64,000 nucleotides of DNA from contig JAHQIY010000003.1 in NCBI GenBank assembly GCA_019054805.1, positions 5,022,001 through 5,086,000 on the forward strand. Direction: 5' to 3'. This DNA is from Brachionus manjavacas (lineage: Eukaryota > Rotifera > Eurotatoria > Ploima > Brachionidae). Positions 11,507 through 62,309 of this stretch are shown piece by piece. A model generated the notes under the pieces. The model saw nothing but the letters and a program-made list of their open reading frames with translations, was not told the origin of the DNA and did not search any database. Each line of letters opens with the position of its first letter. The stretch's first letter is position 1. The position numbers and the translations under genes are program-made.

Positions 11507-13708
11507 ACAAGAAGCTAAATAAATCAACTTTAAGAACAAAACCTCTTAATAAAACAAGGTTAGTAATTACACACTGGAATTGTCTTCATTTACCTAGTAG
11601 GGTTCATCTCTTAGACAATTTTTTAGCTCAAAAATGTCCCGACATTGTTTTGCTCAATGAATTAAAGATAGATTTGAGTGAGGCAAATATTAATCTTGAT
11701 TTTCAAAATTATCAGTTCTTAACAAAACCACGCAACAAGTACGGAGGAGGAGTAGCTATTTTAATTAAAGAAGGAATCGAATTTATACAAGATTTTTCTT
11801 ACGAGGAATTCAATTCCGAACTCCTTTGTATAAAAATGAACTTAGGAAAGAATAATGAACTGTTTGTATTTAGTCTTTATAATCCACCTAATGTGCTTCT
11901 GAACTTTGAATTTTTTAAAACAGTAAATAAAACATGTAGAAACTACATTTTAGGTGGTGATCTAAACGCTAGAACAAAGCAAATAGGCTGCGTAGGGGAA
12001 AATGAAAACGGGATAATATTAGAAAGAATAATCAACGAGCTAGACTTTTCAGTAATCAATGATAAGCATCCTACTTTCAATATTTTTAATAAGAATTACT
12101 TTGAAATTCTTGACCTTTTTTAGTTTCATCTTCATTGATTGACAAAATTACCGACTTTAGTGTCTTAAATAGTCAAGACATGACTAGTGACCATTTCCCA
12201 ATCGAAGCATCGATTTCTATGGGCTATCAATTAGAAAATAAATCAGCAGCTAAAAGGCTTAACTATAAGAAAGCAAACTGGCAAATATTCAGGGAGATTT
12301 TAAATTCTCAAATAGTGAATGTCACTGAAAGTTCCCTCACAATAGATCAACTAAATGATAAAATAACAGAAAAAATTATTTATCATAGAACTTTTTAATT
12401 TAACTCTTCGAGAAGGTAGACTCCCGAAAGCGTGGAAAACATCTTACATTACTATGATTCAAAAAAAGGCCTCTAGTTTACACGATCCTTTAAATTATAG
12501 ACCAATTAGTATAACGAGTTGTTTAGGAAAGCTACTGGAACGCATAGTATATTCAAGATTATACAATTTTTTAGAGCAAAATTCACTCCTTATCCAGGAG
12601 CAATCTGGATTTAGGAAACACCGGCGAACAGCAGATAATCTTTTCTTCTTAATTCAAAAAATTGTGGAATCATTTAATAGAAAAAAGAGTTTGCGGCCTT
12701 TTTTTGATATTTCTAAAGCCTTTGATAGGGTTTGGCATGAAGGTTTACTTTTTAAATTGATTAAAATAAATCCACCTCATTACTTGACTAACTGGATAAA
12801 ATTCTTTTTAGACTCTAGGACATTTAAGGTAAATGTGAATGACCATTTGAGCGAAGAATATCAAATAACTGCAGGTGTTCCTCAAGGCTCAGTAATTAGT
12901 CCTCTTTTATTTAGTATATACATTAATGACATCCCTAAAAGAAACAAAACAAATAATGAATACTCTCTGCTTTTTGCATGATCTAGTTACATTCTTCATT
13001 TATAACAAAAAAGGGAACCTAGAAAATAAGATCAATAAATACCTCAACGAATTAGAACAATGGCTTATTAAGTGGAAAATGAAGATATCGGTTGAAAAGT
13101 CGTGTTCATTAGTCTTTTCTAGGTACAAAAAAGAGAGTGATAATCTTAACTTAAAAATTTATGGAAACAGAATAGAGAGACAAAAAGAAATCAAGTTTCA
13201 TGGTATTAAATTTGATTCTAAATTAAACTTTAATATACTGGTAGATGAAATTAAAGAGCGCTGCAATAAAAGGCTAAATATTATTAAGATATTGTCAAAC
13301 AAAAAATGGGGTCTTAATCAGAACACACTAGGAAATCTATATAAATCTTTAGTCGGATCAATTTTTGACTATTCTTTTCCTTGCTTGAATTCATTTTCAG
13401 AAAATAATATCAAAAAACTACAAGCAATTCAGAAGACAGCAGTCAGATCTATTCTTAAGTTAAAATATGATACTCCCTCCAACATCGTACATCATGAGGC
13501 TTTTAATAAACTAAAATTACTAACAGTCTCGAATCGGCTTTTTGAATTGAGTGAGAGATATGTTGGGGCAGGACTGATTCATTCTATTCCATTGGTTGTA
13601 AGACTGGTGAAGGAATACAAAGAAGGTTTCGAATCAAGATATATTGACTACCCAACTCCATTGTGTAATTGCTACCTTACTATTTCTTCTTTTTTTCCTG
13701 AAACTTGA
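11503..13708 (+). pseudogene. LINE ORF2 (endonuclease-reverse transcriptase), disrupted
   Basis: The APE-type endonuclease starts at 11503 (THWNCLHLP, DIVLLNELK, GGDLNAR, TSDHFPIE). A frame change occurs between 12123 and 12135, and after 12398 sequence is missing that would encode the linker and first RT motifs. RT resumes at 12454 with NYRPISITSCLGKLLERI, DISKAFDRVWHEGL and GVPQGSVISPLLFSIYINDI. At about 12978 the catalytic FADD motif is destroyed by a two-base loss that gives a stop; the frame continues at 12986-13708 with the thumb/C-terminal region. The protein cannot be functional. The copy at 31451-31660 keeps SLLFADDLVS and shows what was lost. Confidence 0.85.
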
Positions 13709-18979: not shown

Positions 18980-21274
18980 TTATTTAGTTTTTTCACTTTC
19001 GTAATGTTTTTTTCTATCAAAATTGAGATTGCCAAAAATGTCTTTAAAAACCTTTTTAAATGGTTTGTTCAATAAATAAAAAATTACAATCGAATATGAA
19101 CAAGATGCAATGTAAAATAGATTACCAAAATCTAAAAAATTATCACAAATTTTTTCTGATTTTTGACAAAAATTAAACCTAATTGTTAAAAAAAAAATAA
19201 AAAAAATAAATGATAATTCAAATAAACGAAACAAGCAAAGAATTAAATTATTTAGCCAGATTTTGATTGTCATCTTGACAATTTTGTCTTGAATTTGTCT
19301 AAGATGATCAATTTTCGCTTCTTGACTTGACGATTGGGACCAAAATTTTTTGCTTATATTCAATTGTTCTTTGAATTTAAATAGTAAGTAAGCGTTTGAT
19401 ATCAATAAAATTGTCCACAGAATTATACCATTGAATAAAACATTTATCACAAAAAGGAAAAAAAATCTGTTTTTTAACAAAATTTTTATTTGAAAGCCAT
19501 ACAAGTCATACGATACTTCGACATCTTCTGTTATGAACCAATTTCTCATTGGGAATCCATAGTAATCAGGATCAAAATCGCCATCTGTGTTTTTGACTAT
19601 CGATGAGGTAAGCTTATCAATGTTAGATCCGATTAAAACTAAAAAAAAAAACAAAAAAAAGACAACTTTTATAAATTTATTTTTTGAGTTAACTAAATTT
19701 TTTATCGATTTGAAAAATTTTGATTTCTCATCAATCATGAAGCAACGAAATACAGAAATCCAAATATTTAAAATGTTAGACAAGGTTTTTAGAATACCAC
19801 ATAGAAAATCAACCAAATAAATTTCATAATACTGTACTATAACATTTCCATAAAGACGTGAACAAAATATTCCATTGATCACTGTACATGAATTCATGAT
19901 GTGAAAAGACAAAATTAAGCAATAGAATAAATTTACAATTGAACACAATGTCATAAAATTGTATAATGTAAACGTTATCTTTTTTTTTTCTTTTAATTCA
20001 ATTTTTTTGCATTTATTTATTATAAAAATGCTCAAAAGATTAGTGATTATTCCAGTCAATGAGAATATCAAGTGCCCAATTGAACTAGCGTAGCTTAAAA
20101 TAGCTCCTATGATAAAATAATTCAATTTAAACTTTAAATTCGGATTAACTTCAGATTTAATTGAATCCATTTGTAAATTTTTGCAACTATTTTCCAATCT
20201 TATAAAATCACATGAACCATTTAGTTGCTTGGATTCACATATCTTAAGCCATATTAACAAACAATTGCAAAAGTTTTGATTTATCTTCAAAAAAACGTGT
20301 AAACTTATGAATTTATATTCCTGAAATTTATAAAATAAACAAAAATCTTGATCTGAAAACAAATAACCATCAATGACTCCAAAATCAATATAAATGAGCT
20401 TATTTAAATTACTATCCCATTTGCCAAACCAAGCATTATTTTCATACAAAAATTTATTTAATTCGTAAATCTCCAAATTTAAAATCTTCAATTTTTTTAA
20501 TCTTATTAAAATAGACCAGTCAATAATTTTGATGTGTCCGCTAATTGTTAAAAAATTGATGTTTCCAAAAACATTCAAATCGATTATATCCTTTGTAACA
20601 CTTATCTCATGTCCACCTAAATTTAATTGCTTTATTTTTGTTTCAAATGAAATATTTAAATTTATAAACTTAACACTATTTTTAAAAATAAAAGTGTCAG
20701 AAATTGTATTAAAAACAATCTGATTGATACTGCTATTGTGAAATATTAGAGGACAAATTAGAGTTTTGTATTTTGTATTTTTGAAAAATACTGCATAACA
20801 ATTCCTTAAAAAACTTAACTGTTTTGCTTGAAAATAATTACAGTTTGTGGAGTATAAAAGATTGATTTTGGAATAAACAAAATTGACTAATACCTCACCG
20901 TATAAGTTATCAAATATTTTGAGGTTGTTTTGAATCTTACCAACATTACTGAATACAAAAACTGGAGAATCTATTGCTGTCACATCGAAATTTCCTCCTG
21001 TCTTAAATTCTAATTCATCTGATAAATCAATTCGAGTATCGGGTATAAAATTGAATTCAAAATTATAAATTAGAAACTCATCACTTTGAATACAGTCTAG
21101 ATTTATTTGTGAAAAATGATTAAAATTTTTAATTGATAGTCCAAAAATTTCTTTCATTGAATTCTTGAGAAAGCCAAACTTGGAAGCTTGGTCCGTGCAA
21201 TTAGACCAATTACGAATACTGATATTCAGTGTTTTGCTGAATAAAGAAACAATTATAATTATATTTAATAGCAT
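18980..21274 (-). CDS. Orphan seven-transmembrane receptor with long extracellular domain
   Basis: This is a single uninterrupted frame of 764 residues. Residues 1-17 are a hydrophobic signal peptide. Residues ~18-385 form an ectodomain with many Asn-X-Ser/Thr sites, Leu/Ile/Asn-rich repeats resembling degenerate leucine-rich repeats (for example LKKLKILNLEIYEL near 260) and a Cys cluster at ~336-364 (CNC...C...C...C) like an LRR C-cap. Seven hydrophobic spans follow at about 395-420, 433-460, 483-511, 533-552, 603-632, 668-700 and 713-735, then a basic helix-8-like stretch (NKPFKKVFKDIFG) and a short tail. FRC replaces DRY after span 3. This matches a rhodopsin-like or LRR-type GPCR plan, but no specific family or ligand can be named. 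It is intronless, unlike PHF10 and the lectin locus. The function is probably sensory or peptide reception at the plasma membrane (inference). Confidence 0.8.
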   Translation of the reverse strand: MLLNIIIIVSLFSKTLNISIRNWSNCTDQASKFGFLKNSMKEIFGLSIKNFNHFSQINLDCIQSDEFLIYNFEFNFIPDTRIDLSDELEFKTGGNFDVTAIDSPVFVFSNVGKIQNNLKIFDNLYGEVLVNFVYSKINLLYSTNCNYFQAKQLSFLRNCYAVFFKNTKYKTLICPLIFHNSSINQIVFNTISDTFIFKNSVKFINLNISFETKIKQLNLGGHEISVTKDIIDLNVFGNINFLTISGHIKIIDWSILIRLKKLKILNLEIYELNKFLYENNAWFGKWDSNLNKLIYIDFGVIDGYLFSDQDFCLFYKFQEYKFISLHVFLKINQNFCNCLLIWLKICESKQLNGSCDFIRLENSCKNLQMDSIKSEVNPNLKFKLNYFIIGAILSYASSIGHLIFSLTGIITNLLSIFIINKCKKIELKEKKKITFTLYNFMTLCSIVNLFYCLILSFHIMNSCTVINGIFCSRLYGNVIVQYYEIYLVDFLCGILKTLSNILNIWISVFRCFMIDEKSKFFKSIKNLVNSKNKFIKVVFFLFFFLVLIGSNIDKLTSSIVKNTDGDFDPDYYGFPMRNWFITEDVEVSYDLYGFQIKILLKNRFFFLFVINVLFNGIILWTILLISNAYLLFKFKEQLNISKKFWSQSSSQEAKIDHLRQIQDKIVKMTIKIWLNNLILCLFRLFELSFIFFIFFLTIRFNFCQKSEKICDNFLDFGNLFYIASCSYSIVIFYLLNKPFKKVFKDIFGNLNFDRKKHYESEKTK

Positions 21275-25330: not shown

Positions 25331-25873
25331 TTATTGAATTATTTGATTGTGATCATACTCTTGATTTTGTGTCAAACGACTTGTGTCGCACTTGATTGAT
25401 TCGCGGTATTTTTGTAAATAAAGTTTTAGTGGTTCAACATAATTATCAAAACCAAGAGTTGACATGGCGTACAAAATATCTTCTCCATTTATAGTTTTTC
25501 TTTTTTCCAAAGAACAACGTTCAGCAGCTTCACTAGTAATAAATGAAATGAACTCGCTGACGCACTCTTGGACACATTCTTTGGCATCTTTAGCTATTTT
25601 TCCTCTCTCTGGAATCGCTTTTTTCATCAACTTTGCTACATTTGCAATCGGCAAAAAGCGATCTTGTTCCCTCAACACATGCGGTAGTTCCTCATCATCA
25701 CTTCCATGTGTTCCATTTTGATTTGTTAAATGCACCTCATGGCCTAAAGCTGCGTAGAGCTCGTTTCCACTATCTTCGCCGATAGGGTGATGGACTGCGC
25801 CATTCAAAACACCAGCCGCCAATGCATCTTGTGAATCAACATCACCTCCATTACAATCATTCGGATTCATCAT
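25331..25873 (-). CDS. NFYB: Nuclear transcription factor Y subunit beta (NF-YB)
   Basis: A single-exon 180-residue protein. The histone-fold domain spans about residues 71-162 and includes [66 protein letters not shown] and [14 protein letters not shown], nearly the animal consensus including the NF-YC dimer surface and DNA-contact residues. NF-YB pairs with NF-YC, then NF-YA, to bind CCAAT boxes. The acidic N terminus (1-70) and short tail are not conserved. Two Met codons (25873, 25870) could start translation. No intron is needed. Confidence 0.96.
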
Positions 25874-27610: not shown

Positions 27611-30600
27611 TCATATGCACAAACATTTTTCCATCAAACTCACACACTCGTTAAGCTTAATTCTGTTCGCGTCCAGCCACTCAATTGGAATGAATGGAAA
27701 TCCGCGATTTGTTCTAACTATTCCGAATATGTCGAGCAAGTGGGAAAAATCAGCCGAGTGAAAAACCTGCTGTAGCTCGAAAGTGAATGGCACAAGCGGC
27801 ATGCCTGTGTTGTAAACGTGGTAAAAGTTGATCATTTTCATTTGAAACACCGAAGAGGAATTCAGCTTGGGGTACTGCAGCGAACTTAGTAGATTGGACG
27901 CCAATGTGAACTGGTTGATCTCATTGGCATTTTTGTTAAGATGAACAGTTTTTTTGGCCAAATAGAGCTTCAAATTTTTCAAGATGGTGAAGACCCAGAA
28001 TATGGCATTGCGGGTCCTTTTTGATTTAATGCACAATTTGTCTATCAAATACTTAACATAGGCTTCTTTTAGATTCTTGCGGAACTCGTCGGTGCTGCAC
28101 GCTTGCCGCAAGCTGATGCATTCATTGCTCTTGAAGAAATCGTCCTTGTACGAGCCAAAGCCCAAGTTCAAGCCAAGAGAAAAATTTGTGCCGGCCAAGT
28201 GCGAGTCGTTCAGATCGCTCAAGTAGCTGAGCTTTTCATCCATTGAAAATTTCATCTGCAGCAAGCAATTGTAGATTTGCCAAGAGTTTACTTTCACATC
28301 ATTGGACAAATTTGGCGACACGGACTCGAACAAATCGACCAAATAGTTAAAAATTCGATACAAATGGTCATTTTTGACCATGAAACTGCTCAGTTTGCTT
28401 GACTCGCTTTGCTTGGATGAATTGTAGGAGTAGTGGGTCTTTTTGAAGGCGTCCAGTGATCTCAGACAAAAAAGAAACTCGTTTTCAATGATCATTTTGA
28501 GTTCTTTGGTCAAGCTTATTTTGGGCGTCGAGTTAATGTGCTCGAAGTGGTCAATGCTTTCTGTGTCCGAGTCGGCCGATTTCGTGGCCGATTTTGTGGC
28601 TGGTTTTGTGGCTAGTTTTGAGTTTGGCGACGAGTCGGACGGAGATGAGGTGGACGTGGACTGTAGGGAGGACCACGAGGACGAGCAGCTGGATATTTTG
28701 GAGGCCGAAAACGAGTCCGAGTCCAAAAAGGGGTCGGTGCCGCTGTTGTTCTCGATTTTGGCGCGCTTTTTCCCATGACCAATCTCCTCCTCAAGTATTT
28801 TCTCCACGCCGCAGTTGATATTGAACAAAACTTTGTTGGCAAAATGGGGTCTCTTCTTGCACAGCCTCTTGATGCCACACAGCATGTTGGACACCAAGTC
28901 TTTGGTTCGCTGATCGAGCAGTCGATAGTTGTCCAACGTGGCTATGTTGGCCAGAGCGAGTGCAAAGTTCATGTGAAACAAGTACTCGTGTTTGTTGGTC
29001 TCGCACATCAACGAGTCCAGCAAATCGATCACACATCGATTCAGACTCGGGTCGTTTTGCACAAACTGAGTGAGGACATGCTTGAGGATGTAGGACGTGT
29101 GCGTGTTGGCGTACAAGGAGTATATGTCGTTGAGGTTCAGGCTGTGAAATGAGAGGCTAGTGGACGCGATGGTCGACGAGTTTTTGGTCGCGTTGGTGTC
29201 GCTGTTGACCAGCTCGGAGTCGCGGTCGAGTTCGCGCGAGCGAATGCACCGGATGAGCTCAAAACACTGCTTGATGGTTTTAAGATAGAGATGGTTGGTG
29301 AGAAAAATGTACTTGATCAGAGAGTTGGAATAGACGTGCTCGTTGTAGCAGTAGAAGCGCATCAGCAACGGGAATAGTTGTTTTAGTTCGTCGAAGTGAA
29401 GCAGTTCGTTTAGGAAGACGCAAAATTCAGCAATTTCCTCTTGGTCGCTGGACGAGTTCAGGAGCCGGAAGGAGTTCAGGAGCTCTAGGTGGTAGTTGAC
29501 ATAGTCGAGCAGTTCGTGGAGACACCCGATGGCCATGCACAAAATTTTGAGCGAGTTTGTGTTGGTCACTTTTTTGAACTGGTCCTGGCTCGACTCATCG
29601 CTGCTTTTGCCAATATTTTTCAACTTGAACAAACGCAGCAAGTTCATGTTTTTAAAGTTGGAGTCAAAAATCAATTGTTCAAAGCTTTCCAATATCAAAT
29701 AGACCAGATAAGCAAACAGGTCGTAGTTGATTAGGCTTTTTTTTATTTTTTTTTTCTCTTCTTCCCTTTGGCCACCACTTTGCTCGGTCGATTCCTTCAG
29801 GTCTTTTAGAATAAAGTTGGGCACCAAAAATTTGACCAGCCACAAAAAATAAGACAAATCAAAATAGACTATGAGATCGACTGGTTTGCTCAGCAGCCGA
29901 ACCATTTGCTCCACCATGTTCGAAAAGGACTCTGATTCGGAAAAATGTTTGGCAAATTTGGCCAATTTTTTCTGCATTAGTTGCAGGTGACTTTTTGTTT
30001 GGCCCGTTTTCGCCTGTTGTCCACAGCCAGAAGACGCCGAGCTGATCGATGGTGAGTCAGATCGATCCGAGTTTGGCACAGCCCGGACAGTAACTTTGCA
30101 AAATAGAAGCGACATTATCTGAGCTATGAGAGAATAGCACACAAATGCTCGCTGGTCGAATTTTTGTTCTCCAAAAAGCTTTCATTTATTGCCGGCAAAT
30201 TGGACAACTGAAGCAAGAAAGGCTCCAAATTGGCTTCCAATAAAAGACTCACAATCAACGCACAGTTTGTCTCGTTTGTGTCCACACTCAGGTTTCTCAT
30301 CAGCGCCAAATTGAGCACCAAGCTGTCAAACAAAATGTTGTTAAGAAGCTTAAAATGCTTTAAGTGCACCGGGTTCGGATGAACTGATTTTTGAGCATGG
30401 AAAGTCGAGCTTATCGACTTGTAATAGTCGATTAAGTTGGTCAAAGATTGGCCAATGTGCGGGAGCATTTTTGATTCAATTAGACTTTCTTTGAAAGAAG
30501 CTAAGCTCAAGTCGATCATCGAGTCCAGATCGATTCTTTTGGTCGACTCGTCTGCTTCGTTTATTTCGCTCACAAAATCTGGTGTATCCAGACTGGTGTC

Positions 30601-31077
30601 CACATTTCTGACTATTAGGTCAAATCGGTTCAAAATAATGAATACAAAATTGTGGTTCAAGTAGAGAAATTCGCTTGGCGATGTCAAATCGACCAAAAGT
30701 CGGAGCAGTTCGTTTAGGGTTTTGATCAGCTTTAGGCTGGAGATTAGCTCCTTGTGGTTCTCGAGCAAGCGTCCCGGGTTTTTTACCAATGTGTCATGTT
30801 GGTTACAGTTGTTTATCCTGCCCAGCATTAACTTGTAGAATGGCACCAACTTTTTGACCACAATCGAATGCTTGAATATGATTGTGCGAATTTTCCTGAA
30901 CTCGCGGTCGTACTCCTCCTCCTGTTCCAGAAAGTCGTTCATCTTTCGAAAATATTCTAACAAAATGCTTATGTTGAGAATGGTCTTTTTCGACTCGGCA
31001 CTCTCTTCTGTTTGGTTTTCGGTACGGCTCGTTTCCATTTCTGGATCAAGCTCGCTGACGTCTTGTTCCGCATTCAT
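27611..31077 (-). CDS. TIMELESS: Timeless/Timeout homologue, copy A (one-base frameshift)
   Basis: Two overlapping minus-strand frames (31077-30124 and 30142-27611) make one intronless gene of about 1,155 codons. The join lies at an A run (T 30161-30165 on +) with five As where copy B has six, so either a real inactivating deletion or a sequence error. Family evidence: the N-terminal helical region (EYDREFRKIRTIIF, NELLRLLVDLTSPSEFL), NDPSLNRCVIDLLDSLM, KRPHFANKVLFN, the KSKRTRNAIF segment and the C-terminal PLVPFTFELQQVFHSADF with WLDAN follow the order in human TIMELESS. Timeless with Tipin stabilises replication forks and supports checkpoint signalling. A Ser-rich linker and KKRAK basic motif lie in the middle. 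Codons are much richer in G/C than in copy B or neighbouring genes. Confidence 0.72.
30025..30447 (-). repeat. Conversion tract shared with Timeless copy B
   Basis: These 423 bp match 59511-59934 on the opposite strand with one substitution (30082 versus 59877) and one missing A (run at 30161-30165). Identity stops abruptly at both edges; beyond them the two genes differ at many sites. Confidence 0.95.
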
Positions 31078-37815: not shown

Positions 37816-40800
37816 TCAATCATAAATTGGATTTGACATTCCTTTAATAATAGTTACCTTCTGAGAATCATTAAAATATATGCTTTCATTGTTTTGATTT
37901 TTAAAAAATATTTTATCTATTATTGGTATTTTTAGCATGATAATTTTTTTCTTCTTCAGATATACAATTGATAATGAACCAATCACAACCACTCCTCCAA
38001 TTACCAAAACAATAATCAAAAATATAGTACCACCTCTTAATTTTGAATTCTGGTTATCAGCATCTTAAAAAAAATAAATAGTTTATTTTTATAGATGTTT
38101 TTTTTTTACTTTCAAAAGATGAATTTGATAGAGTGAATGTTGTGAATTCTTTAGTAAGAGTACTCATTCTACTAGTATCAATTGTAGAGTTTTTATTTTT
38201 TGATGTTGATGTGTATGAGCTTCCGGGGTTAGTAATAGGAGTAAAACTTATTGTTGTAGAAGTACTTATAGTTGATGCAGTATTTACAACTATAAAAATA
38301 ATATAAATATATTTAATTTTGAAAAGGGAAATTGTTCACTTCTTGGCAGTTTACAAGTATATCTTTTTTTACTATAAAAGCACTCTGAATCATACCATTT
38401 ATCATTAGACATATAAACACACGGTTGACTTTGGACTGAATTGGCAAAACTTAAAAATTCTAAAGGCCTGCCATCTTGCCAAACATACGAATCTAAATTT
38501 TTAAGTTTATGATTTTAATTTTTTGTTTATTTAAAATAATACTTGAAATTTGGTTTTTTTCCAGTCCTATCCAGATAGGACCTGGTGATATTGATGAAGT
38601 CGAGCTGATTGATGAAACAAATTCAAGCTCTTCATTACTATGAATGGTCACCAAATAAGCCCCTTGTTGGTAGCAGTCAAGTTTAGCATCACCATACGAT
38701 CTTAGATTTACTTCAAATTTGTAACAGAACGAACCAAATTCTTGCCAATTATCGGGACAATAACCTGGTGGTGGTGGAGTAATAACTGGTATGGGTTCTG
38801 AGGTAATTTTGCAGATAAAAGGTTTTAGTTCATCACAAGAAGTTGTGTTCCATAAGCCATTCTTTGATTGAATGTAAAAACAATTTGAATTTGAATTTGA
38901 TGAAAAATCTAATGAATTTTCACCCCAATTAACAAAGGTCACCGGCCAACCATCAGACCAATAAAATGAATTATCATCATTCTCAAAATTTTAATCATTA
39001 TTTTTAATTTTTTTGGATTTATTTTAATTACTTTTAAAAGACCGATCCAAGGATCGGCATTAGTTTTTACATAGGTCAATAAATTCATAAAAGCTTGTTC
39101 AAATCCGTCTGATACTGTTGCTAATTCAGCGGCATCTCTTTGTTTGCAAAATTGTTTTGCATCCGACCATTTTTTCTTATCTAAATATAGTTGGTAGCAA
39201 TTTTTTCCATTATCCAAACTAAAGTATCCTGGTTTTGAGCAGCCGCTTGAAATTAAAGGAAGATTCGAATCTTTAAAAAAAAATTTAAACCGCTTGAATA
39301 TTTTAATATTTAAAAATTTTTAATTCTAATATGAAACCCAATTTGGAAAATTATAGTGGCAAATATTTTTTGAAAAAAAATAACCAATTTTATTCTAGTT
39401 AATATCATTTAAATGGAAGATTTTTTCATATATATTGGCATTAAAAGTGAAAAAATAAGTTTGTTTTTAAAGCTAAAAAAGGACGTACTCCACACGCGAG
39501 TAAAGCCTTAGTTAAATAAAAACATTTTAATTTTTCTATAAATTCATATTAAAAATAGTTAAGCTTCGATTAAAAATTCAATTTTAAAATTACATTAGAC
39601 TTTTTTATATGTTGTTTAAGCAAAAAATAAATTTTGAATTTTTTTCTTAAACTTAACAACATACTTTGGGTGCTCACCAAGATTTGAATGTGAGGTGACA
39701 AAATATTCCCTAAATTAAATTAATAACTAGATTGTTTATCATTATTTATTATTTTTATTATTTGTTTTTTTATTCACATATTGTTATCAAGCTTAAGCTC
39801 CTTCAGAATAATTTAAAAGTAAAAAATAAAAAATAAAAATAAAATATAGAAGAAAATTTGAATAGATAAATTAAAAAAAATAAATGATATCTAATATCTA
39901 ATTAAATATTGAATAGTTCAGGAAAGATGAAATAGTAGGGTAATAATTACACCATGGAGTTGGGCATTCAATATTTTTTCTTGAAAAAAATTGAAGAATA
40001 TGTCTAATTATTCTAATATGGGATGCAAGATAGGAATTTTTTAGAAACTTGTCTATCTTTGCAAAAAATACTACTCTACTACTAAAATTTATTAAAAATC
40101 AAAAACAGAAAAAAAAATTAATTTAATTTAAATATTTGCTTTATCGTTAAAATATTTAATTATTTGCTTAATAAAACATTATTTAAAGGTAGTATTAGTA
40201 TTTTTGTGAGACGTTAAGCTATTTGTTAAACTATTATATCAGTTATGGAGTACAAACATCTGATAAAATTGAAAAAAATACAAGTTAAAACTGTTAAAAT
40301 AAATTAAATTAATGTCATTCAGTTAAATTCAATATTAAATGATATTTTCTTGCATGCAAAACTTTTTAAAATTTTTTTCTCACAAAAATTGATGTTAAAA
40401 AAAAAAAAAATTGTTTAAATATAAAAACAGATTTTAAAAAAAAATAATAATATTAATGTTTACATATTTTATTTTAAAGATTTGTTCATAGAGTCATTTC
40501 AGATGTCCAATTTTGATTAGACATATTTTTCAACTGATTTCCAACAAGATAAGACGACAAATACTTTTGGAGCTATTAATAATTTTTAAATTACCTGGAC
40601 AGTTTCCCCATTTAAAATCCTGATCACAATCATTCGTTGTACAGCACCACTTTTTTAAAACATCACTGGCATCACTTAATGGTCTTGATTCATAAGTGCA
40701 TTGGTAATGAAAAACATTTTTGTATTGGAAAGGAAATACACATGGACTTTGATTTGAATTACCTCCATTGGTATAAACTTAAGTTTTGTATTACAAAACT

Positions 40801-43800
40801 TTGAATTTTATTTTAAAAAAGCAATGACTACCTGGTAAATTGATGCATTGATACCAGACTCTTAGTTGTTTTTTTACTCCAGGACACGGATCAGTGAATA
40901 TTGATGCATTGGCTGATAGATAGCAACTATTTTTTTCTTGACATAACTCTCTAACTTTATCAGTTGTTGTCGTACGAGAACTACACTCTTCGCCGTAATG
41001 AAATTCATCTAAATTTTTGATTTAATATTGTAAAAGTTTCAATATAAACTAATTAAATACCATCACATGACAAAGAATATTGGTCTCGACCAAAATCTGC
41101 TTTTATTATTGCGATACTTAAATTTTGAGCACACGAAAGAGTTATATTCTGGCTGAATGAACTCAGGTCTGATGCCTCACAACCCGCAGAATACTTAACA
41201 CCATCTTAAATAATTAAGCTCTAGCCAAATTTAATTAGAAAATATTCTAAATTAATTACTAGCTTTGGTTGAGCAAACAAAAAAATTCTGAAAATTGCAA
41301 TCAACATTTATCCATAGACCTGGTGTTTTGGGGTAACCACTAATTACTACGCATCGTTCATTCTTTAAAAATAAAAAATAAAATAAAAAAAAACATTTGC
41401 TAAAATTACTCCGTAAATATTTCCAGGTTTGTTCGGAGCCCAATTTGTATAGTCTAATAAAGAGTTATCTTCAAAAAAGAAATTGTTTCCCGATGGAGCC
41501 CACATACCCAACCAGTACTGTACGTTGGTTTTGTTTCTCATCAAAGCAGTTAAGTAGGCTTGTGAAAAAATTAAAAATTATTTATATTTTTTAAAAAAAT
41601 TAAAACCTCACATTGTTCGATGACATTATGGACCGATGCAAGACTTGCTTCGTCTTTCATACAAACTTTTCTGGCTTCAGAAAACGATTTCCGGTCATTT
41701 ACAAATCGAAAACATTTAATATCCACGCAGTAGCCCCATCTTAAGTCCTGATCGTAGTCAAATGTTGTCGAGCACCATGGAGTTCGATTTTCAAAAGTTA
41801 CACATTCATAATAATATTTGTTTTTGTATTTAAATGGGAAAACACATGGACCTGTATTGCCTTGGTTATCAGTGGTAATAACTTGAATTTTGGTGAAAAA
41901 ATTATTAATTAAATTTAAGTTAGGAAAAGTTTTTAAGCCAAAATCTTTTAAAAGTCAAAAATAGAGCTGGTAATTCATTTTCAAGTGGCTTCTTAAGATC
42001 AGAACCAATTTTAAAAAATTTAAATAAATTTTTTAAATTTTTGAATTCTTGTTCTTAAAAAAATGTCCTTCAATGAATTGAAGCAACCCTTCTTTTTTTA
42101 AAGAATATTATTAGACATAAAAATCAAAAAGCTTTGTTGAAAACCTTTCTATAAGGATAAATTTATATTTATCATTAAAATAGAACAAAAGGAAAATAAA
42201 TTTTTAAAACATTGTTTTTTTTCAAACTTATAATTTTAAAATCATAAAATTTTTAATTAAAAAAAATGCTTAAAGAAATATTATCTTTGATTTCTTCATT
42301 ATTTCAAAAAAAATATAATATTAGAAAATTTGTTTGTTTAATCTTTTGTGTTAATAAATTGTAAATTTGATAAATCATTTTTTTTTTGTAAAGAAAAAAA
42401 ACCGTAAATTGATCAAAATAGATCAAAATATAATCAAATATATTTTACTGATATTATTTACAGACCAATCTATTAAAAATACTAATCATATAAATACAAG
42501 CCTAAACTAGATGGTCTCTAAATATATTAGAAAAATATTTTGATCTTTTTCAACAAATAATTTAAAATCGGTTCCATACATTATCTACTAGTTCAATCAA
42601 ATCTGTCGAAAAAGAATGGAACGGTTAAAATTCATTTTTTTGTGAATACCGGGATCGAAAACTGCCATATTAATTTTGACATAAAACAGGCTAGATGTTT
42701 AACAATTTCAAGTTAATTTAAAAATTTTATAAATTAATTCTTAATGTTTCACTATCAATTTTTCTTAGAACAAAAATATATCGAAATATCCTTAAAAATG
42801 TTGGCTTGATCACGATTCAGTCGTTTTTAAAATTATTGACAAGATCCTTTCTGATCTCCGGTGGTAGTTTGACTAACTCATCTAAAGCGCATTCCGCTCT
42901 TAAGGTTTTCCTCATCCTGATTTGGGTCCTCTCCGATAAACAAAAATTTACAAATTTTCAGATCGATTTTAATATATACATTAATTCATTTTAAAATCTT
43001 AAATATTGAATTATAAAATGTTGATTTTAACATTTAATATTTTTGGCTTTTAAAATTTTTGATAAAAACTTAATTCATTCAAATATAAGGCAATGAAAAC
43101 CAACAAAAAAATAAATTATCAAACCTCCGAAGGTTGAATAACCAGGCGGGCATACATCTGAATTTCCATTGTTGAAGCTTAATGGTAAAACAACATCTGT
43201 TTCTCTAGTAAAATTCGACTTCTCACAAACAAATCCATTCGGACTCGCACAATTCACATCACTTTGATTATTTTGATAATAAATAAAAATATTAAAATAA
43301 TAAATAATCAATTTTTTTTTACTTCCAAAATGCTAAAAATAAAAGGTTGTTTAGTCTAGAAAAATTTTCTTCAATTATTTTAGAACTTACATATAGACGA
43401 AAGCATTTCGGCACACTTTTCTCCTCCATGTGCATCATTTGGCTCACCTGAATTCCAGTGTAAATAATTTAATGGCGAACTATCTGACCACAAGAATCCG
43501 CTATTCGATGATGCATACAATCCAATCCACCACTTGTCCAATTTTTTGCTCGCCTTAAAAATTCAAATTAATCAAAATCGACTAAATATTTTTATTAAGG
43601 CAAATAACTATTGTTGTGACATATTCCAGTTCTTTTTTTGAATGCATCGAAACTAAATCACCACCTATATTTTGACAAAATTTTCTGGCACTATACCAAT
43701 CATTTTTTTCTTCGTTTATGCCCGAACTAGCATAATAACACTTTCCATTGTAATAAGTCCAATTGTACTTAGTATTATTTGCACATTCAATTACTTAAAA

Positions 43801-45034
43801 ATAAAAAATATTGTTTCTTAGTTGAATCAATTCTATTCTTACTTGGAAACTTGTCTTCAAAGATCTCTGTTGAATTATTTGGATCGATGCCTTTTTCAAT
43901 TTGGCATGACCAGCCTTTATTTGTGTAGCAAAAGTTGTCTCTCCATCTTCCAGATGTTCTAAGCTCGACACAGTTTTCAATTCCATTTACATCATCTGGT
44001 TGACCAAAATCCCAATTAAAAAAACTAGCACCGCTTCCGTCTGCCCATTGATACCCAGTGTCTTTATCTAGTTTGTTAAGACCAATCCAAAATGCGTAAT
44101 CAAAGCCAAATGTGTATGCAAATTGACCATTTATTACTTGGCTTGTCGAAGAAGATGAACTAAAACTTGATAGATGTCCATTCAATGATTTACAAAATGA
44201 TTCTGCATCAAACCAGTTTTTTTTTTCATCCAAATTTTTTGGACCAAATAGTTTGTGGCATTTGTTATCTGCCTCGGTCCACGAAGTGGGACATTTTATC
44301 GGTTCAGGCGTTGTAGGCGTAGTCGGAGTAGTGTACAATGAATTTCTTGTGCTACAAATGCTAGGCAGCTTTAAGTTACACCCAAAATTAGACCAAAAAC
44401 CAGCAGAGCTCATGCCAATGCATTTACCAGCATTTATATCAGGATTGTTGCGATCCCAATTGCTAAAAGAGAAAAAATCTCCATTACTCCATTCATAGTT
44501 GTTAAATGGTATTCTAAGACCTATCCATTTGTTTGCCAAAAAATCGGAATGGAACTCAATATTCAGCCAATATTGTTCAAATCTATCTGTAATAGATACC
44601 AAGTTAGAGCCTAAATTTTTACAATTTGACTCAGCTTCATCCCATGTTAAAAATGACAATTCCAAATGAAAGCATCTGTTCTCATAGCCGATAAATCCCT
44701 TCGGAATGAATGTAATTTATGAGTAAAAATTTTATTCAAATTACTGATGGACATCCTGGAGTTTGTGTTGTGGTCAAAGTTGCGGGAATCGGTTGAGCTT
44801 TCTTTTTACAAAAAAAACCATTTTTGTAATTACAGGAAGTAACTATCCATTGACCAGCATCAAAAGGTTCAACAGAAGAGTCTTTAACATGCATTGCTAC
44901 GCATTGAGCGTTTGAATTAGGTTCATCAGGAGCCCAGTTTGAATAAGTTGGAAATGTTCCTGATAACCATTTAAATGATACTTGATTGTAACCTGCAAGT
45001 TCGTCATACATTCCAATCCAAACTGATTCCTTGA
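37816..45034 (-). CDS. Mannose-receptor-like lectin, membrane-proximal half: CTLDs, FN2, SUEL lectin, TM, NPxY tail
   Basis: The exons read right to left with consistent GT-AG phases. CTLD8 C-half (45034-44778, EPN) starts directly at a phase-1 acceptor; CTLD9 (44.72-44.36 kb); CTLD10 (44.3-43.84, QPD); CTLD11 (43.8-43.2, EPN and WND); FN2 (41.88-41.73); CTLD12 (41.7-41.27); SUEL/galactose-binding lectin (41.2-40.84: IKADFGRDQYSLSC, ELCQEKNSCYLSA, DPCPGVKKQLRVWYQC); FN2 (40.78-40.6); CTLD13 and CTLD14 (39.27-38.34); Ser/Thr stalk (38.29-38.12); then one membrane span (FLIIVLVIGGVVVIGSLSIV) and a ~45-residue tail ending SNPIYD. NPIY fits the NPxY endocytosis signal. In mannose receptors such proteins bind glycans and recycle between surface and endosomes. 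EPN (mannose-type) and QPD (galactose-type) predict sugar binding for CTLDs 8, 10 and 11. The N-half of CTLD8 is missing where LINE sequence begins; this half is probably continuous with 47214-53432 or a 5'-truncated gene. Confidence 0.85.
39780..39995 (-). mobile_element. LINE 3' end in a lectin intron
   Basis: The minus strand reads CCCAACTCCATGGTGTAATT then ATTACCCTACTATTTCATC, as at 13649-13690 of the Jockey-like LINE, and ends TTCTGAAGGAGCTTAAGCTT with an A/T-rich tail. It is truncated to ~210 bp and lies in the same orientation as the lectin gene. Confidence 0.75.
42780..42960 (-). other. Short less-AT-rich coding-like island in a lectin intron
   Basis: The minus strand keeps an open stretch reading MRKTLRAECALDELVKLPPE followed by IRKDLVNNFKND and a stop. 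Its composition and open frame differ from the AT-rich intron around it (41.9-43.1 kb). It is not a lectin, FN2 or SUEL sequence. It looks like the end of a mobile-element or captured protein, but I do not recognise it. Confidence 0.35.
43323..43332 (-). other. 10-nt micro-exon in CTLD11
   Basis: On the minus strand CATTTTGGAA is bounded by AG (43333-43334) and GT (43321-43322). Joined to T from the exon ending at the GTAAGT donor and to TGATGTGAATTGTGC downstream, it keeps frame and gives SFWNDVNC, supplying the W and part of the N of the WND calcium-site motif. Skipping it would break the frame (10 nt). Confidence 0.75.
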
Positions 45035-45169
45035 CTGAAAAAAAGAATTTAAATTTATCATTTTAAAATTTTGAATAAAAAAATCCAATAAAAATAATTT
45101 TGAAGAAAATTTAAAGAAAAAAACCTGAAGCATCTAAAAAAATTCCAAGGTAAGCTTTTTTTCCTAAGC

Positions 45170-45860
45170 AGAATCGTGGATAATTTTGAAAAGGAGTAAT
45201 GTAGTTCTAAAAAACTTTATCACCTAAAATAGATAATGGGTTCTAGCAGTTTTTCAAGATAGCTTGTCATACCAAGTGGTCTATAATTAGATGGATCGTG
45301 TGTTTAGGGTGACTTTTTAGGTATCGTAGTTATGTTTCCAATTTCCCATGCTTTAGGTTTCCTACCATATATAAAACTTAGATTAAAAAGATGAATTTTA
45401 TCTTTTAAGAAATTTTGAGGTAAATTTTTCAACATTAAATTGTGAATTTGATCAAGTCCTGAAGTCGCGTCTTTCCTCAGGTTATTTAGAATCAAAATTA
45501 ATTCATACTTAGTAATTGATTCATTAAGAATACAATCTTTGTTTTCCTCAAAAAATTTTGAGCTAAGATTAATTATTTGCTTATCCTTTAGGGTATCTAT
45601 TATATCAATGTTAGGGATAAATAATATAATAATATGTCCCTTTCTTATCCTAGCTGATAATGGGGAAGCACTTGTCTCCTTTTCCACTTCCTTTTTGAGC
45701 AACGGTTTCGACGTGACACAGAGGTCACTGCATCAAGCTGATTACCTATCTATGAGACCGCTATTATTACCCAGTCGAAATCTATCACCCTTTTTTAATG
45801 AGAGGGGTTTAAGCATAAGCCCCGTAATGCACAGATCTTTTCTTCCAAATTTATTTATTT
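45170..45860 (-). pseudogene. Jockey-like LINE RT fragment inside the lectin locus
   Basis: The minus strand frame 45702-45304 reads KYELILILNNLRKDATSGLD, QIHNLMLKNLP and KAWEIGNITTIPKK, then in another frame HDPSNYRPLGMTSYLEKLLE. This is the start of a LINE RT; the rest is absent. The start region matches 1250-1440. Its left edge lies about 130 bp from the CTLD8 C-half exon. Confidence 0.8.
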
Positions 45861-46059
45861 TTTAACAAAAGTTTGCTTGAAAGAGGATTTTTGCTCATTT
45901 TTTTAACAAAATCGAACTTATTATGATTTCAAAACTTCTTTAAACTAATTTTCAAAACTGTTGCAAACTTATTTAATGTTTTTTTTTTATCTTTTGAAAA
46001 CGAGTTTTTTGAAAGATTCTCCTAATTTTTCAACGTTCCTTAATTAGATCTACTTCATT

Positions 46060-46280
46060 TCACTTACTTTGAAAGCTAAACTCTTAAATCTTACTTCCCC
46101 TGAAGGAGTTTAATTGAAAATAAATAAATGAGAGTGTATTGATTGTTGAATTTGAATTAAGATTGAAAATTCGCTAATTGACCATACAATTTAAAACTAT
46201 AAATTTTGATTTAAAATTTTTTAATTTATTTATTATTCTGAAGGAGCTTTATCTTGATAAAGATAAATAAAATCAAAAAA
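46060..46280 (+). mobile_element. Two LINE 3' tails in tandem
   Basis: TTCCCCTGAAGGAGTTTAAT followed by AAATAAATAAATGAG at about 46091-46131, and ATTCTGAAGGAGCTTTATCT followed by AAATAAAAT at about 46235-46275. Both match the tail of the 13.8 kb LINE, in the plus orientation, opposite to the RT fragment beside them. Confidence 0.65.
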
Positions 46281-47213
46281 ATACCTTTAGCAATAGATTT
46301 TTGTATTTATAATTTTAAATTACTTAATTTTTGGCACTAAATGAATTATGAAATATTGTTTGATAAAATATTGTGATGTTTTTACAGAAAATTAGTTTTG
46401 TAAGCGCAACTCAGTTCAACAAGTTTGGTTGTTTCAATTGCTGCTAAAGTCGGCATACCACAAGAAAAATCTCTGCATTATGAATACATAGAAATATGTT
46501 ATTTTTTATCATTATTTATAAACAACGTTGCACTTAAAAATTAAATATTACTTTATTGAAAATTAAAGTATCTTTATTTCTATTCTGATTTCACGAATCT
46601 AAATATATTTTTGTTTTTGATATATATTATTTAATAGCATGGCACTATTAAGTTTTTTAATTCAGAAACAAAATACCAAGTTTGTTTTTTCTAGTATAGC
46701 ATCTTTTATTTATAAAAAATTTATTTAAGGAATTACCTAAGATATAAATCTAAATTTAATGAGTTATGTTTTATCTTAAAAACTTTTAAATTAAATAAAT
46801 AATGATCCAAATTAAATTTTAAAGAGTATTAATTAAACAGCTTGGCTCTGCTTATCAAAAGTTATTTTATTGTCATCTAAAATACTAATCAATTTTAGTT
46901 ACTAAATAATAATTTTGTAACTTAGTATGTTATAAGATTCATTTTCAAAATTATAATATAATTTTTCACCAAATTCTAAAAGGCTTGATCTGGAAAGTGA
47001 ATCTGATAGAAGTTTTGTAGTAAGAATGCAAACTCAAGACAATCAAGCAATTTCTAGACAAAGCTAAAAACCAAAAAGAAAGAAAATGGCGCCTAGTATT
47101 TTGTTTTAAGATATTAAATTTTTTTTCGGACTAAAAAAAAAGTATTAAAAAAAGTACATTGACATTTTTAAATTTGGACATAGTTATAGTGTAAATGCAT
47201 ACACTATTATTAT
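46281..47213. other. AT-rich stretch between the lectin halves
   Basis: No lectin exon, TE coding segment or RNA gene was recognised. I looked specifically for an N-half CTLD (CP.GW...CY) on the minus strand and did not find one. Confidence 0.45.
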
Positions 47214-58961: not shown

Positions 58962-61900
58962 ATGGAATCGAACAGCCATTTTAAATTTAATCTGAGTGGT
59001 CTGCTTGATTATTTCGAAAAAATTAACGATTCACTGCTTAATGAGGAAGAGTTCGACCGTGATGAGAGAAAAATTCGCAGGATTCTATTCAAACTCGGCA
59101 TTTCAAATCAACTAGTACCTTTCCATTCATTTATTTTAAAAAAACTCAATTCACATAAAGATAAATTTTTGACAACAATTGTGGAATTGCTCGATAATCA
59201 AAAAGAGCTCATCTCGGCAATAAAACTGATCAAAACTTACAATGAATCGCTTCGATTAATCATTAACTTAACTTCACCATTAGAATTTTTGTCCATTAAT
59301 CACAATTTTTTGCTGCCAATTTTACACAGATTTGATTTAGTTGTGAAGCCCGGTTATAGCAACCTAGAGATACCTGATTTTATCAATGAAATTTCACTGC
59401 TAAAAAATGAAAATTTTCAACAAAATGATATTTCCGTGTTAAACGATGCAAATATTGGATTGTTTAAAGAAATGTTGATTAAATCGGAAATATTTCCTTT
59501 AATCGGCCAGTCTTTGACCAACTTAATCGACTATTACAAGTCGATAAGCTCGACTTTCCATGCTCAAAAATCAGTTCATCCGAACCCGGTGCACTTAAAG
59601 CATTTTAAGCTTCTTAACAACATTTTGTTTGACAGCTTGGTGCTCAATTTGGCGCTGATGAGAAACCTGAGTGTGGACACAAACGAGACAAACTGTGCGT
59701 TGATTGTGAGTCTTTTATTGGAAGCCAATTTGGAGCCTTTCTTGCTTCAGTTGTCCAATTTGCCGGCAATAAATGAAAGCTTTTTGGAGAACAAAAAATT
59801 CGACCAGCGAGCATTTGTGTGCTATTCTCTCATAGCTCAGATAATGTCGCTTCTATTTTGCAAAGTTACTGTCCGGACTGTGCCAAACTCGGATCGATCT
59901 GACTCACCATCGATCAGCTCGGCGTCTTCTGGCTCGCTGCAGCACCTCCAAAATAATCCAACTAAGAACGATTGGCAACTAATGCAGAAAAAATTGAACA
60001 AATTTGCCCAAAAATTTTCCAAATCAGAGTCTTTTTCGAACATGGTCGAACAAATGGTTCGTCTGCTGAGCAAACCGGTTGATCTTTATGCTTATTTTGA
60101 TTTGTCCTATTTTTTGTGGCTAATTAAATTTTTAGTAAAAAATTTTATTCTTAAAGAATTAAAGGAATCGAATGAAGAAAGTGGTGGCCAAAGAAAAAAG
60201 ATAAAAAAAACTCTTATCAACCACGATCTGTTTGCTTACATCACATTTTTAATATTGGAAAGCTTTGAACAATTGATTTTTGACTCTAATTTAAAAAATA
60301 TCAATTTGCTTCGTTTATTTAAATTAAAAAAGTTTATTCATTCGGACAAGGAAATAAGCGAGGAACAATTCAGCAAAGTTACCAATGTAAATAGTTTAAA
60401 AGTGTTGTCTACAAGCATCAGTTGTCTCAATGAATTATTGAACTATTTAAGCCACTACATAGATCTGGTCAGCACTTTCAAAATTTTCAACACAGACTTG
60501 GCTGATTTTTTGTTTTTTCTTAATGAACTTTTGCATTTCGATGAGCTTAAACAACTATTTCCTCTTATAATGCGATTTTATTGCTACAATCAGCATGTGT
60601 ACTCCAATTCTCTGGTCAAGTCAATACTAATGACAAACCAAATTTTCTTGAGCACCATGAAACGCAGCTATGAACTCATCCGTAACATAATTAACAAAGA
60701 GCAAGAAAGAGAGTCTGACGGTGTCCTCAGTGACACAAATGCGACCAAAAATTCTTCGAGCATCGTCTCCAGTAGTCTTTCATATTCCAGTTTTAATCCA
60801 AATGAAATTTACAACTTGTATGCCAATACGCACACGTCACATATTCTAAAAGATGTTCTCACCCAGTTTGTGCACAATGATCCAAGTCTGAACCGATGTG
60901 TCATCGATTTGCTGGACTCGCTGATGTGCGAAACAAAAAAACACGAATACTTGTTTCACATGAATTTTGCTCTGGCCCTGGCCAACATAGCCACTTTGGA
61001 CAACTTTCACTCACTTGACCAGCACACCAAAACCATTGTGTCCAATTTGCTTAGTGGCATAAAAAGATTGTGCAAGAAAAGGCCACACTTTGCCAACAAA
61101 ATTTTGTTTAATATAAACTATGGCAATGAAAAATTAAATGCAGAAAATTATTTTGTGCAAAGTAAGAAGCGGAAAATTTCCGAAGTTTTGAGCAATTCGG
61201 ATTTTTTCGCTGACTCGGACTCAAACTCTTTTTCGCTTTCGAAAAATTCAACATACACATCGTCCATATCCTCGCTTAGATCCAAGGACACATCTTCGCC
61301 AAGTGAATCATCGCCAAATAACTCGAAAGATGCTGATGAAAATGTCCAAACAGCTGATGAAATGGATGATGGTGAAGCATTCAAAAACCTGGACACCCTA
61401 AACTATCCCAGCATGGCTGAGCTAAATAGAGAAATGCAAATTTTGATTGAAAATGAATTTTTGTATTGCATTAAATCAATGAAAGAATTCAAAAATCAAC
61501 AGTACAAATTGCCAAAAAGAGATGGTACTTGTGACGTATTCGACACTCTCATCCTAAACAAGATAATTGTCTATTTGGTCGACTTGTTCACTTCAAAGTC
61601 TGTAGACTCATCCAGAAATTTCGATGTCAGCTCATGGCAAATCTACAATTGTCTTTTGAACATGAAATTTTCCATGGATGACAAGATCAAGTATCTTAAC
61701 GAGCTAAATGATTCATACCTGAGTGGAAAGAATTTTTCCAAAGGCGTCAATCTGGGCTTGGGACCGATGAAAAACGAGTTTTTCAAAAGCAATGAATGCA
61801 TTCGAATTCGACAAGCATGTGATACGGACGAGTTCCGCAAGGCTCTAAAAGAAGCTTATACTAAATATCTAACAAATCGACTGTGCACTAAATCGAAGCG

Positions 61901-62309
61901 AACCCGCAACGCTCTTTTCTGGTTACTGAACATTTTAAAGAGCTTGAAGATCTATGTGTCCAAGAAAACAAAAAATATGGACAAAAATGCCAATGATGTG
62001 AACCACTTTATTTTAGTACCCAGCTCAAAAAATTCAAGTGTCCACGCCAAAATCACCAATTCTTCGATGGAATTTCAAGTTAAGCTGACTAATTATTACT
62101 ATGCATATAGACCCGGAATTCCTCTTATACCATTCCGGTACGAGCTTCAGCAAGTGTTTCATTCGGCGGATTTTTCGCATCTCCTGGATGCGTTCGGAAT
62201 AGTTGGATCAAAGACTGGGTTTCCATTCATACCCAATCAATGGCTGGACGCCAATAGACCAAATTTAAATGAATGTTTAGATTTAATGGAAAAGTGTATG
62301 TGTATTTGA
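58962..62309 (+). CDS. TIMELESS: Timeless/Timeout homologue, copy B (intact)
   Basis: An intronless frame of 1,115 residues; ATG at 58962 follows an A-rich stretch, and an upstream in-frame non-ATG extension is not used. The N terminus (EEFDRDERKIRRILFKLGIS, SLRLIINLTSPLEFL) and the NILFDSLVLNLALMRNLSVD, LLLEANLEPFLLQLSN and SLIAQIMSLLF segments follow the Timeless N-terminal helical repeat, including the VNLT and LV.N.L..P positions. LNRCVIDLLDSLM, KKRPHFANKILFN, SKRTRNALFWLL and the C-terminal IPLIPFRYELQQVFHSADF with WLDAN match the middle and C-terminal regions. The role expected by homology is replication-fork protection with Tipin, in the nucleus. It lacks copy A's GC-rich codons except in 59511-59934. 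A Ser/Asp-rich linker follows KKRKIS (middle). AATAAA at 62435 may be its poly-A signal. Divergence from other animals is large, so the family call rests on motif order. Confidence 0.75.
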   Translation: MESNSHFKFNLSGLLDYFEKINDSLLNEEEFDRDERKIRRILFKLGISNQLVPFHSFILKKLNSHKDKFLTTIVELLDNQKELISAIKLIKTYNESLRLIINLTSPLEFLSINHNFLLPILHRFDLVVKPGYSNLEIPDFINEISLLKNENFQQNDISVLNDANIGLFKEMLIKSEIFPLIGQSLTNLIDYYKSISSTFHAQKSVHPNPVHLKHFKLLNNILFDSLVLNLALMRNLSVDTNETNCALIVSLLLEANLEPFLLQLSNLPAINESFLENKKFDQRAFVCYSLIAQIMSLLFCKVTVRTVPNSDRSDSPSISSASSGSLQHLQNNPTKNDWQLMQKKLNKFAQKFSKSESFSNMVEQMVRLLSKPVDLYAYFDLSYFLWLIKFLVKNFILKELKESNEESGGQRKKIKKTLINHDLFAYITFLILESFEQLIFDSNLKNINLLRLFKLKKFIHSDKEISEEQFSKVTNVNSLKVLSTSISCLNELLNYLSHYIDLVSTFKIFNTDLADFLFFLNELLHFDELKQLFPLIMRFYCYNQHVYSNSLVKSILMTNQIFLSTMKRSYELIRNIINKEQERESDGVLSDTNATKNSSSIVSSSLSYSSFNPNEIYNLYANTHTSHILKDVLTQFVHNDPSLNRCVIDLLDSLMCETKKHEYLFHMNFALALANIATLDNFHSLDQHTKTIVSNLLSGIKRLCKKRPHFANKILFNINYGNEKLNAENYFVQSKKRKISEVLSNSDFFADSDSNSFSLSKNSTYTSSISSLRSKDTSSPSESSPNNSKDADENVQTADEMDDGEAFKNLDTLNYPSMAELNREMQILIENEFLYCIKSMKEFKNQQYKLPKRDGTCDVFDTLILNKIIVYLVDLFTSKSVDSSRNFDVSSWQIYNCLLNMKFSMDDKIKYLNELNDSYLSGKNFSKGVNLGLGPMKNEFFKSNECIRIRQACDTDEFRKALKEAYTKYLTNRLCTKSKRTRNALFWLLNILKSLKIYVSKKTKNMDKNANDVNHFILVPSSKNSSVHAKITNSSMEFQVKLTNYYYAYRPGIPLIPFRYELQQVFHSADFSHLLDAFGIVGSKTGFPFIPNQWLDANRPNLNECLDLMEKCMCI
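59511..59934 (+). repeat. Conversion tract shared with Timeless copy A
   Basis: These 424 bp are the partner of 30025-30447 (minus): one substitution (59877) and six instead of five As at 59793-59798. The tract is richer in GC than the rest of copy B and resembles copy A's codon use, which suggests A was the donor. Confidence 0.95.

What the first reader, a model, noticed from the sequence alone, without database searches (positions are those of the whole stretch)
30025..30447. Gene-conversion tract between inverted Timeless paralogues
Seen directly: 423-424 bp identical apart from one substitution and one A, with abrupt edges, between genes whose flanks differ at the protein and especially the nucleotide level. 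The tract in copy B has the GC-rich codon style of copy A, pointing to A-to-B transfer. It covers the highly conserved-looking HAQKSVHPNPVHLKHFKLL region. Alternatives are an assembly collapse or a strongly constrained functional element, but silent sites are also identical.
Basis: partly seen in the sequence, partly recalled or inferred. Interest (0 to 1): 0.8.

Follow-up and report, generated by a model that had tools for sequence, protein, structure and literature searches.

The report
Recurrent gene conversion in rotifer paralogues
Two old and very different copies of a gene in a Brachionus rotifer share one nearly identical 420-base stretch, and the copies of a related species are alike at the same place, which suggests that gene conversion keeps returning to one part of this gene pair.

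Summary
Window 30025-30447 (copy A, minus strand) and 59511-59934 (copy B, plus strand) differ by one substitution and one base of indel. Outside, the genes are near saturation at silent sites (pS 0.75, against 0 differences over 90 sites in the tract; 0 of 10,000 permutations reach it). The source is a Brachionus rotifer near B. plicatilis. The decisive evidence comes from relatives. In a second species the A and B proteins are identical over 89 residues at the same place. Outside the tract, A groups with A and B with B (support 99-100). Inside, copies group by species, and orthologue clades are rejected (AU p about 1e-6). This is gene conversion that recurs at one segment. Assembly collapse and sequence constraint explain it poorly: between-species identity in the tract is ordinary (0.79). 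Proposed mechanism: the segment is the last one alike enough to recombine, and each conversion renews that likeness.

The parts
30025..30447 (-). conversion tract in copy A (423 bp)
   Evidence: 1 substitution and 1 indel against copy B; 0 silent differences over 90 sites
59511..59934 (+). conversion tract in copy B (424 bp)
27611..31077 (-). copy A gene, no intron seen, read as two ORFs (30124-31077 and 27611-30142) because of a one-base frame break
   Evidence: orthologue P0006 in a second species is one 1148-aa frame
58962..62309 (+). copy B gene, one open frame of 1115 aa
   Evidence: 89% identical to BpHYR1_035581 of B. plicatilis
30161..30165 (-). A5 run where copy A lacks one base against copy B (A6 at 59793-59798); breaks the frame, stop follows at 30124-30126
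30082..30082 (-). the single substitution inside the tract (partner 59877), nonsynonymous
29617..30024 (-). 3' neighbour of the tract, partly homogenised (pS 0.61, pN 0.12), with identical runs of 22 bp (29963-29984) and 35 bp (29661-29695); probably older conversion
   Evidence: tree of this part unresolved

Best explanation
Copies A and B are an old inverted gene pair about 28 kb apart. The duplication is older than the split between the window's species and the second species (ENA record). One segment of the coding sequence, residues about 181-324 of copy B, has been re-copied between them by ectopic (non-allelic) gene conversion more than once: in the window's lineage very recently (after its split from B. 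plicatilis HYR1, on the tract tree) and separately in the second species. Shown: silent-site identity only in the tract, conflicting trees, and different tract edges in the two species (residues 181-324 against 215-303). Inferred: a break in one copy is repaired from the other by homologous recombination; outside the segment the copies (about 47-60% protein identity) are too different for a heteroduplex to extend, which gives the sharp edges; each conversion restores near-identity in that segment and so keeps it eligible for the next one, while the rest drifts apart. Direction of the last event is unresolved.
For: pS 0 against 0.75. Window pair: protein identity 133/134 in the tract, 85/182 upstream, 392/655 downstream; second-species pair: 131/142, 89/190, 371/656. 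Longest identical protein run in the second species is 89 residues at copy-B positions 215-303; 0 of 10,000 permutations reach it. Trees: outside, winA+ENA_A 99/99 and 100/100, winB+ENA_B+HYR1_B 100/100 twice; in the tract, winA+winB+HYR1_B 95/93 and ENA_A+ENA_B 80/86; orthologue clades rejected, p 1.2e-6 and 2.0e-6. winA resembles HYR1_B, from another assembly, at 124/134 in the tract but 87/182 and 378/655 outside.
Against: Only proteins, not DNA, were available for the relatives, so silent sites were checked in one species. No B. plicatilis HYR1 A copy was found, so events before that split are unknown. The ENA clade in the tract has only 80/86 support. In the 84-residue core the B-clade rejection is weaker (p 0.029) and the A-clade test could not run because rows are identical; the 3' neighbour is unresolved (p 0.16 and 0.33). 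Clades were named after the pairwise windows had been seen. The self-renewing similarity is inferred, not shown.
Confidence: 0.85

Rival explanations
1. Assembly artefact: reads of one copy were placed in, or polished into, the other.
For: No reads could be examined. The frame-breaking indel in a homopolymer inside the tract looks like a consensus error, and copy A is otherwise open.
Against: The copies have diverged flanks and lie 28 kb apart on one contig. A separate assembly (B. plicatilis HYR1 copy B) carries nearly the same tract protein as window copy A, 124/134, while the rest of those two genes agree at 0.48-0.58. A third record shows the same pattern at the same place. For the indel as error: the 76 other A or T runs of 5 or more in the two genes, among them A10 and A8 in copy A, lie in open frame.
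Confidence: 0.06
2. Strong constraint on protein and nucleotides (for example a conserved domain or embedded regulatory element) keeps the segment identical without any exchange.
For: The segment holds many residues shared by the family.
Against: Between species the segment is no more conserved than the rest: winA-ENA_A 106/134 in the tract against 561/662 downstream; winB-ENA_B 112/141 against 505/660. Zero silent differences over 90 sites needs nucleotide constraint, which such protein change between species makes very unlikely (inference).
Confidence: 0.02
3. Conversion is real, but selection, not residual similarity, picks the place: both proteins need matching sequence here (a shared partner or dimer surface), so conversions here are kept and others are lost.
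For: Same place in two species although other parts, such as copy-B residues 641-680 with A-B identity 0.97, also stay alike without zero silent divergence (dS about 1 or more there).
Against: No functional information; the predicted structure is too poor to use (mean pLDDT 39.6). Silent sites are swept along, so selection alone is not needed.
Confidence: 0.25
4. One ancestral conversion with slow later change, not recurrent events.
For: Both species are homogenised in overlapping positions.
Against: Within-species identity (133/134 and 131/142) exceeds between-species identity (106/134 and 112/141), which a single ancestral event cannot give; tract trees group by species.
Confidence: 0.03

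Closest known systems
Ectopic gene conversion between duplicates in palindromic orientation (Drosophila Amylase and Hsp70 pairs; review PMC3924832, passages seen)
   Same: Inverted pair; paralogues within a species more alike than orthologues; according to the passages, concerted evolution in Amylase is confined to coding sequence while flanks evolve independently.
   Different: Here only a part of the coding sequence is homogenised and the rest of the same gene is near saturation.
Concerted evolution of mmr-b repeats in the Brachionus plicatilis complex (PMC3495898, passages seen)
   Same: Same species complex; [quoted passage not shown]
   Different: mmr-b consists of tandem repeats within and between copies; here two dispersed inverted genes share one short segment.
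Timeless (timeout) family; the genome's clear member is on contig C6 near 4488413-4493739
   Same: Weak profile matches of the A/B family to three successive parts of Timeless, and one weak match to the C-terminal Timeless domain.
   Different: No match to PF04821; overall similarity below any usual cut-off; the frames seen here show no intron.

Membership tests
Ectopic gene conversion tract | Silent-site identity confined to a bounded tract between paralogues that are diverged elsewhere | tested here: met
   0/90 silent sites in tract, pS 0.752 outside; 0 of 10,000 permutations
Ectopic gene conversion tract | Tract tree conflicts with the tree of the rest of the gene | tested here: met
   species clades inside, orthologue clades outside; AU p 1.2e-6 and 2.0e-6
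Ectopic gene conversion tract | Non-reciprocal transfer with a donor and a recipient | tested here: inconclusive
   codon score of the tract neutral between A and B; GC3 leans to A
Ectopic gene conversion tract | Present in single reads of the individual | not testable with these tools
   no reads held
Timeless family | Pfam TIMELESS N domain PF04821 | tested here: not met
   0 of 7 proteins at E up to 10 (P0002, P0004-P0009); 0 of 7 members of A2 at E up to 1
Timeless family | C-terminal Timeless PAB domain PF05029 | tested here: inconclusive
   1 of 7 (P0008) at E 0.11, 13.2 bits against a cut-off of 23.8
Timeless family | Profile similarity in the same order along the protein | tested here: inconclusive
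   against P0022, P 0.0075, 0.11 and 0.054 in the same order in both, a fourth match (P 0.58) out of order; best score against P0011 27.2, 0 of 60 shuffles reached it (maximum 25.8); hhalign probabilities all 5.2% or less
Timeless family | Similarity to solved Timeless structures | tested here: not met
   1 and 3 chance-level matches at E up to 10, none named Timeless

The most novel reading that the evidence does not exclude
A self-renewing conversion segment: for as long as the Brachionus species compared here have existed, exchange between two otherwise unlinked-in-fate paralogues of a divergent Timeless-like gene has been confined to one shrinking segment of the coding sequence, kept alive by its own homogenisation. 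The frame break in copy A would then be a fresh lesion that lies inside the segment which copy B can still overwrite.
Probability: 0.4. Interest if true: 0.6.

Novelty: new member of a known kind. Interest (0 to 1): 0.45.

Why it matters
Gene conversion between duplicates is well known, but cases in which the same sub-gene segment is homogenised separately in sister species, between copies saturated elsewhere, give a natural test of how much similarity recombination needs and how concerted evolution ends. Brachionus can be cultured as clones and has been edited with CRISPR (PMC10395877, title and one passage seen), so rate and direction could be measured. It also warns that one gene tree for this family would be a mixture of two histories.

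Tried and rejected
Constraint: rejected by ordinary between-species identity. A programmed frameshift or slippage that would read through the A5: considered by reasoning only and thought unlikely, because the codon before the run ends in C; not tested. Identity of the protein: Pfam, solved structures, hmmsearch of the family profile against the frames around the genome's own Timeless gene (best E 0.12, not significant), hhalign. Structure prediction gave mean pLDDT 39.6 from 7 sequences, so no fold search was run. The PF05029 search of the own genome found nothing there or in the 14 control genomes and so tells nothing. An estimate of assembly base accuracy through the Hsp70 family (PF00012) was asked for six times and never answered. 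A first protein search of the own genome failed twice and was answered on the third try. Papers: searches are listings with starts of abstracts; I saw no paper on this gene pair among the 5 listed or the 20 of 22 listed. Passages only were read of PMC3495898, PMC3924832 and PMC10395877.

Full report
What is there. The window lies in a 114-Mb assembly of 61 contigs. The nearest named protein to copy B is BpHYR1_035581 of Brachionus plicatilis (89%), so the source is a Brachionus rotifer; its species was not determined. Copy B is one open frame, 58962-62309 (+), 1115 aa. Copy A lies inverted, 27611-31077 (-), in two frames. The two proteins agree at 711 of 1102 aligned residues. The coding similarity fades at the ends of the coding sequence. 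Two tract copies and no others were found in the assembly.

The tract. 30025-30447 (-) and 59511-59934 (+) differ by one substitution and one base. Over 134 codons there are 0 silent differences in 90.0 sites, against pS 0.752 over 969 codons outside. The identical run of 131 same-residue degenerate codons compares with at most 28 in 10,000 permutations. In 40-codon windows dS is 0 to 0.08 within the tract and mostly above 1 or saturated elsewhere; exceptions are the 3' neighbour (0.49-0.75 at about 29834-30073) and one window around 28907-29026 (0.98). One substitution in 423 bases is 0.24%, near the mean heterozygosity of 0.0016 that PMC3495898 gives for hsp82 in the complex (passage), so the last exchange is young (inference).

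Relatives. Two protein searches with a B and an A query each gave 6 proteins, the same six. P0005 (B type) and P0006 (A type) come from an ENA record and each is given a contig of 30,099 bases, so they probably lie on one contig; their order and orientation are unknown, and the pair would have to be closer than here, where it spans 34.7 kb. P0004 is the HYR1 B copy; no HYR1 A copy was returned. P0007 (B. calyciflorus), P0008 and P0009 are single and nearer to A than to B in the outer parts. In the second species the A and B proteins are identical over 89 residues, copy-B positions 215-303, inside the window's tract of 181-324. Trees of the outer parts join A with A and B with B; trees of the tract join copies by species (8 rows, 7 in the 5' part, where P0009 was dropped because it lacks that part). 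In the tract winA and winB join each other (90/87) before HYR1_B. At least two events follow: one in the window's lineage after the HYR1 split and one in the second species. If the last transfer in the window ran from B to A, no earlier event need be assumed; if from A to B, HYR1 must also have been homogenised. The weak spots are the 80/86 support of the second-species pair in the tract, the unresolved 3' neighbour, the core A-clade test that could not run, and the fact that clades were chosen after the pairwise windows had been seen.

Direction. GC3 in the tract (0.552) is near that of A next to it (0.577 and 0.515) and far from B next to it (0.319 and 0.333), but the codon-usage score is neutral. 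Protein distance to B. calyciflorus is also intermediate: tract 0.66 for both, A downstream 0.72, B downstream 0.58. Repeated exchange in both directions, or GC-biased repair, would both give this. I leave direction open.

The frame break. The indel is A5 in copy A against A6 in copy B; the frame of copy A then stops at 30124-30126. Downstream, copy A stays open for 843 codons and agrees with the second species' A copy at 561 of 662 residues, so it was under selection until recently (inference). It is either a very young lesion, an allele, or a consensus error. Against error, the other 76 A or T runs of five or more in the two genes lie in open frame, including A10 and A8 in copy A; for error, it is a single homopolymer base. 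An independent check of base accuracy did not complete.

The name. The genome's clear Timeless gene is on contig C6 (PF04821, E 2.4e-29; the 811-aa frame beside it is 95% identical over the searched part to a B. plicatilis 'timeless-like protein'). The A/B family has no Pfam match at E up to 0.001 and none to PF04821 at E up to 10. Its profile matches parts of Timeless weakly and in the same order, with one weak PF05029 match in P0008. I put about 0.7 on a divergent Timeless relative. The predicted model is mostly helical but too poor to use.

How it works. The sharp edges fall where the copies lose similarity, and the segment overlaps in two species but with different edges. The simplest reading is repair-driven copying limited by similarity: the segment is the one remaining stretch that still recombines, and each event resets it. 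Selection for sameness is the main rival for the choice of place. The event class is known; the recurrence at one part of the gene is what makes it worth a follow-up.

Noticed in passing
window 6285-6732: A 448-bp AT-rich near-perfect palindrome (93% to its own reverse complement); 160 matches in the assembly counting both strands and pieces, with only 40 of 240 candidates scored: a fold-back or MITE-like repeat family.
   Followed up: partly
window 38493-51271, minus strand: Between the two copies lie exons with C-type lectin domains (3 of 8 frames scanned) and fibronectin type II domains (2 of 8), possibly one large receptor-like gene.
   Followed up: partly
window 57491-58021 and 11503-12123, plus strand: Fragments of retroelements: a reverse transcriptase domain close to the 5' side of copy B and an endonuclease-reverse transcriptase domain.
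   Followed up: no
window 18980-21274, minus strand: A 764-aa open frame without a Pfam match.
   Followed up: no
window 25331-25873, minus strand; 7063-7986, plus strand: An NF-YB/histone-fold protein just beyond the 3' end of copy A, and a PHD-finger protein.
   Followed up: no
window 28907-29026 against 60906-61025: A second, milder dip in silent divergence between the copies (dS 0.98), perhaps a trace of an older exchange.
   Followed up: no
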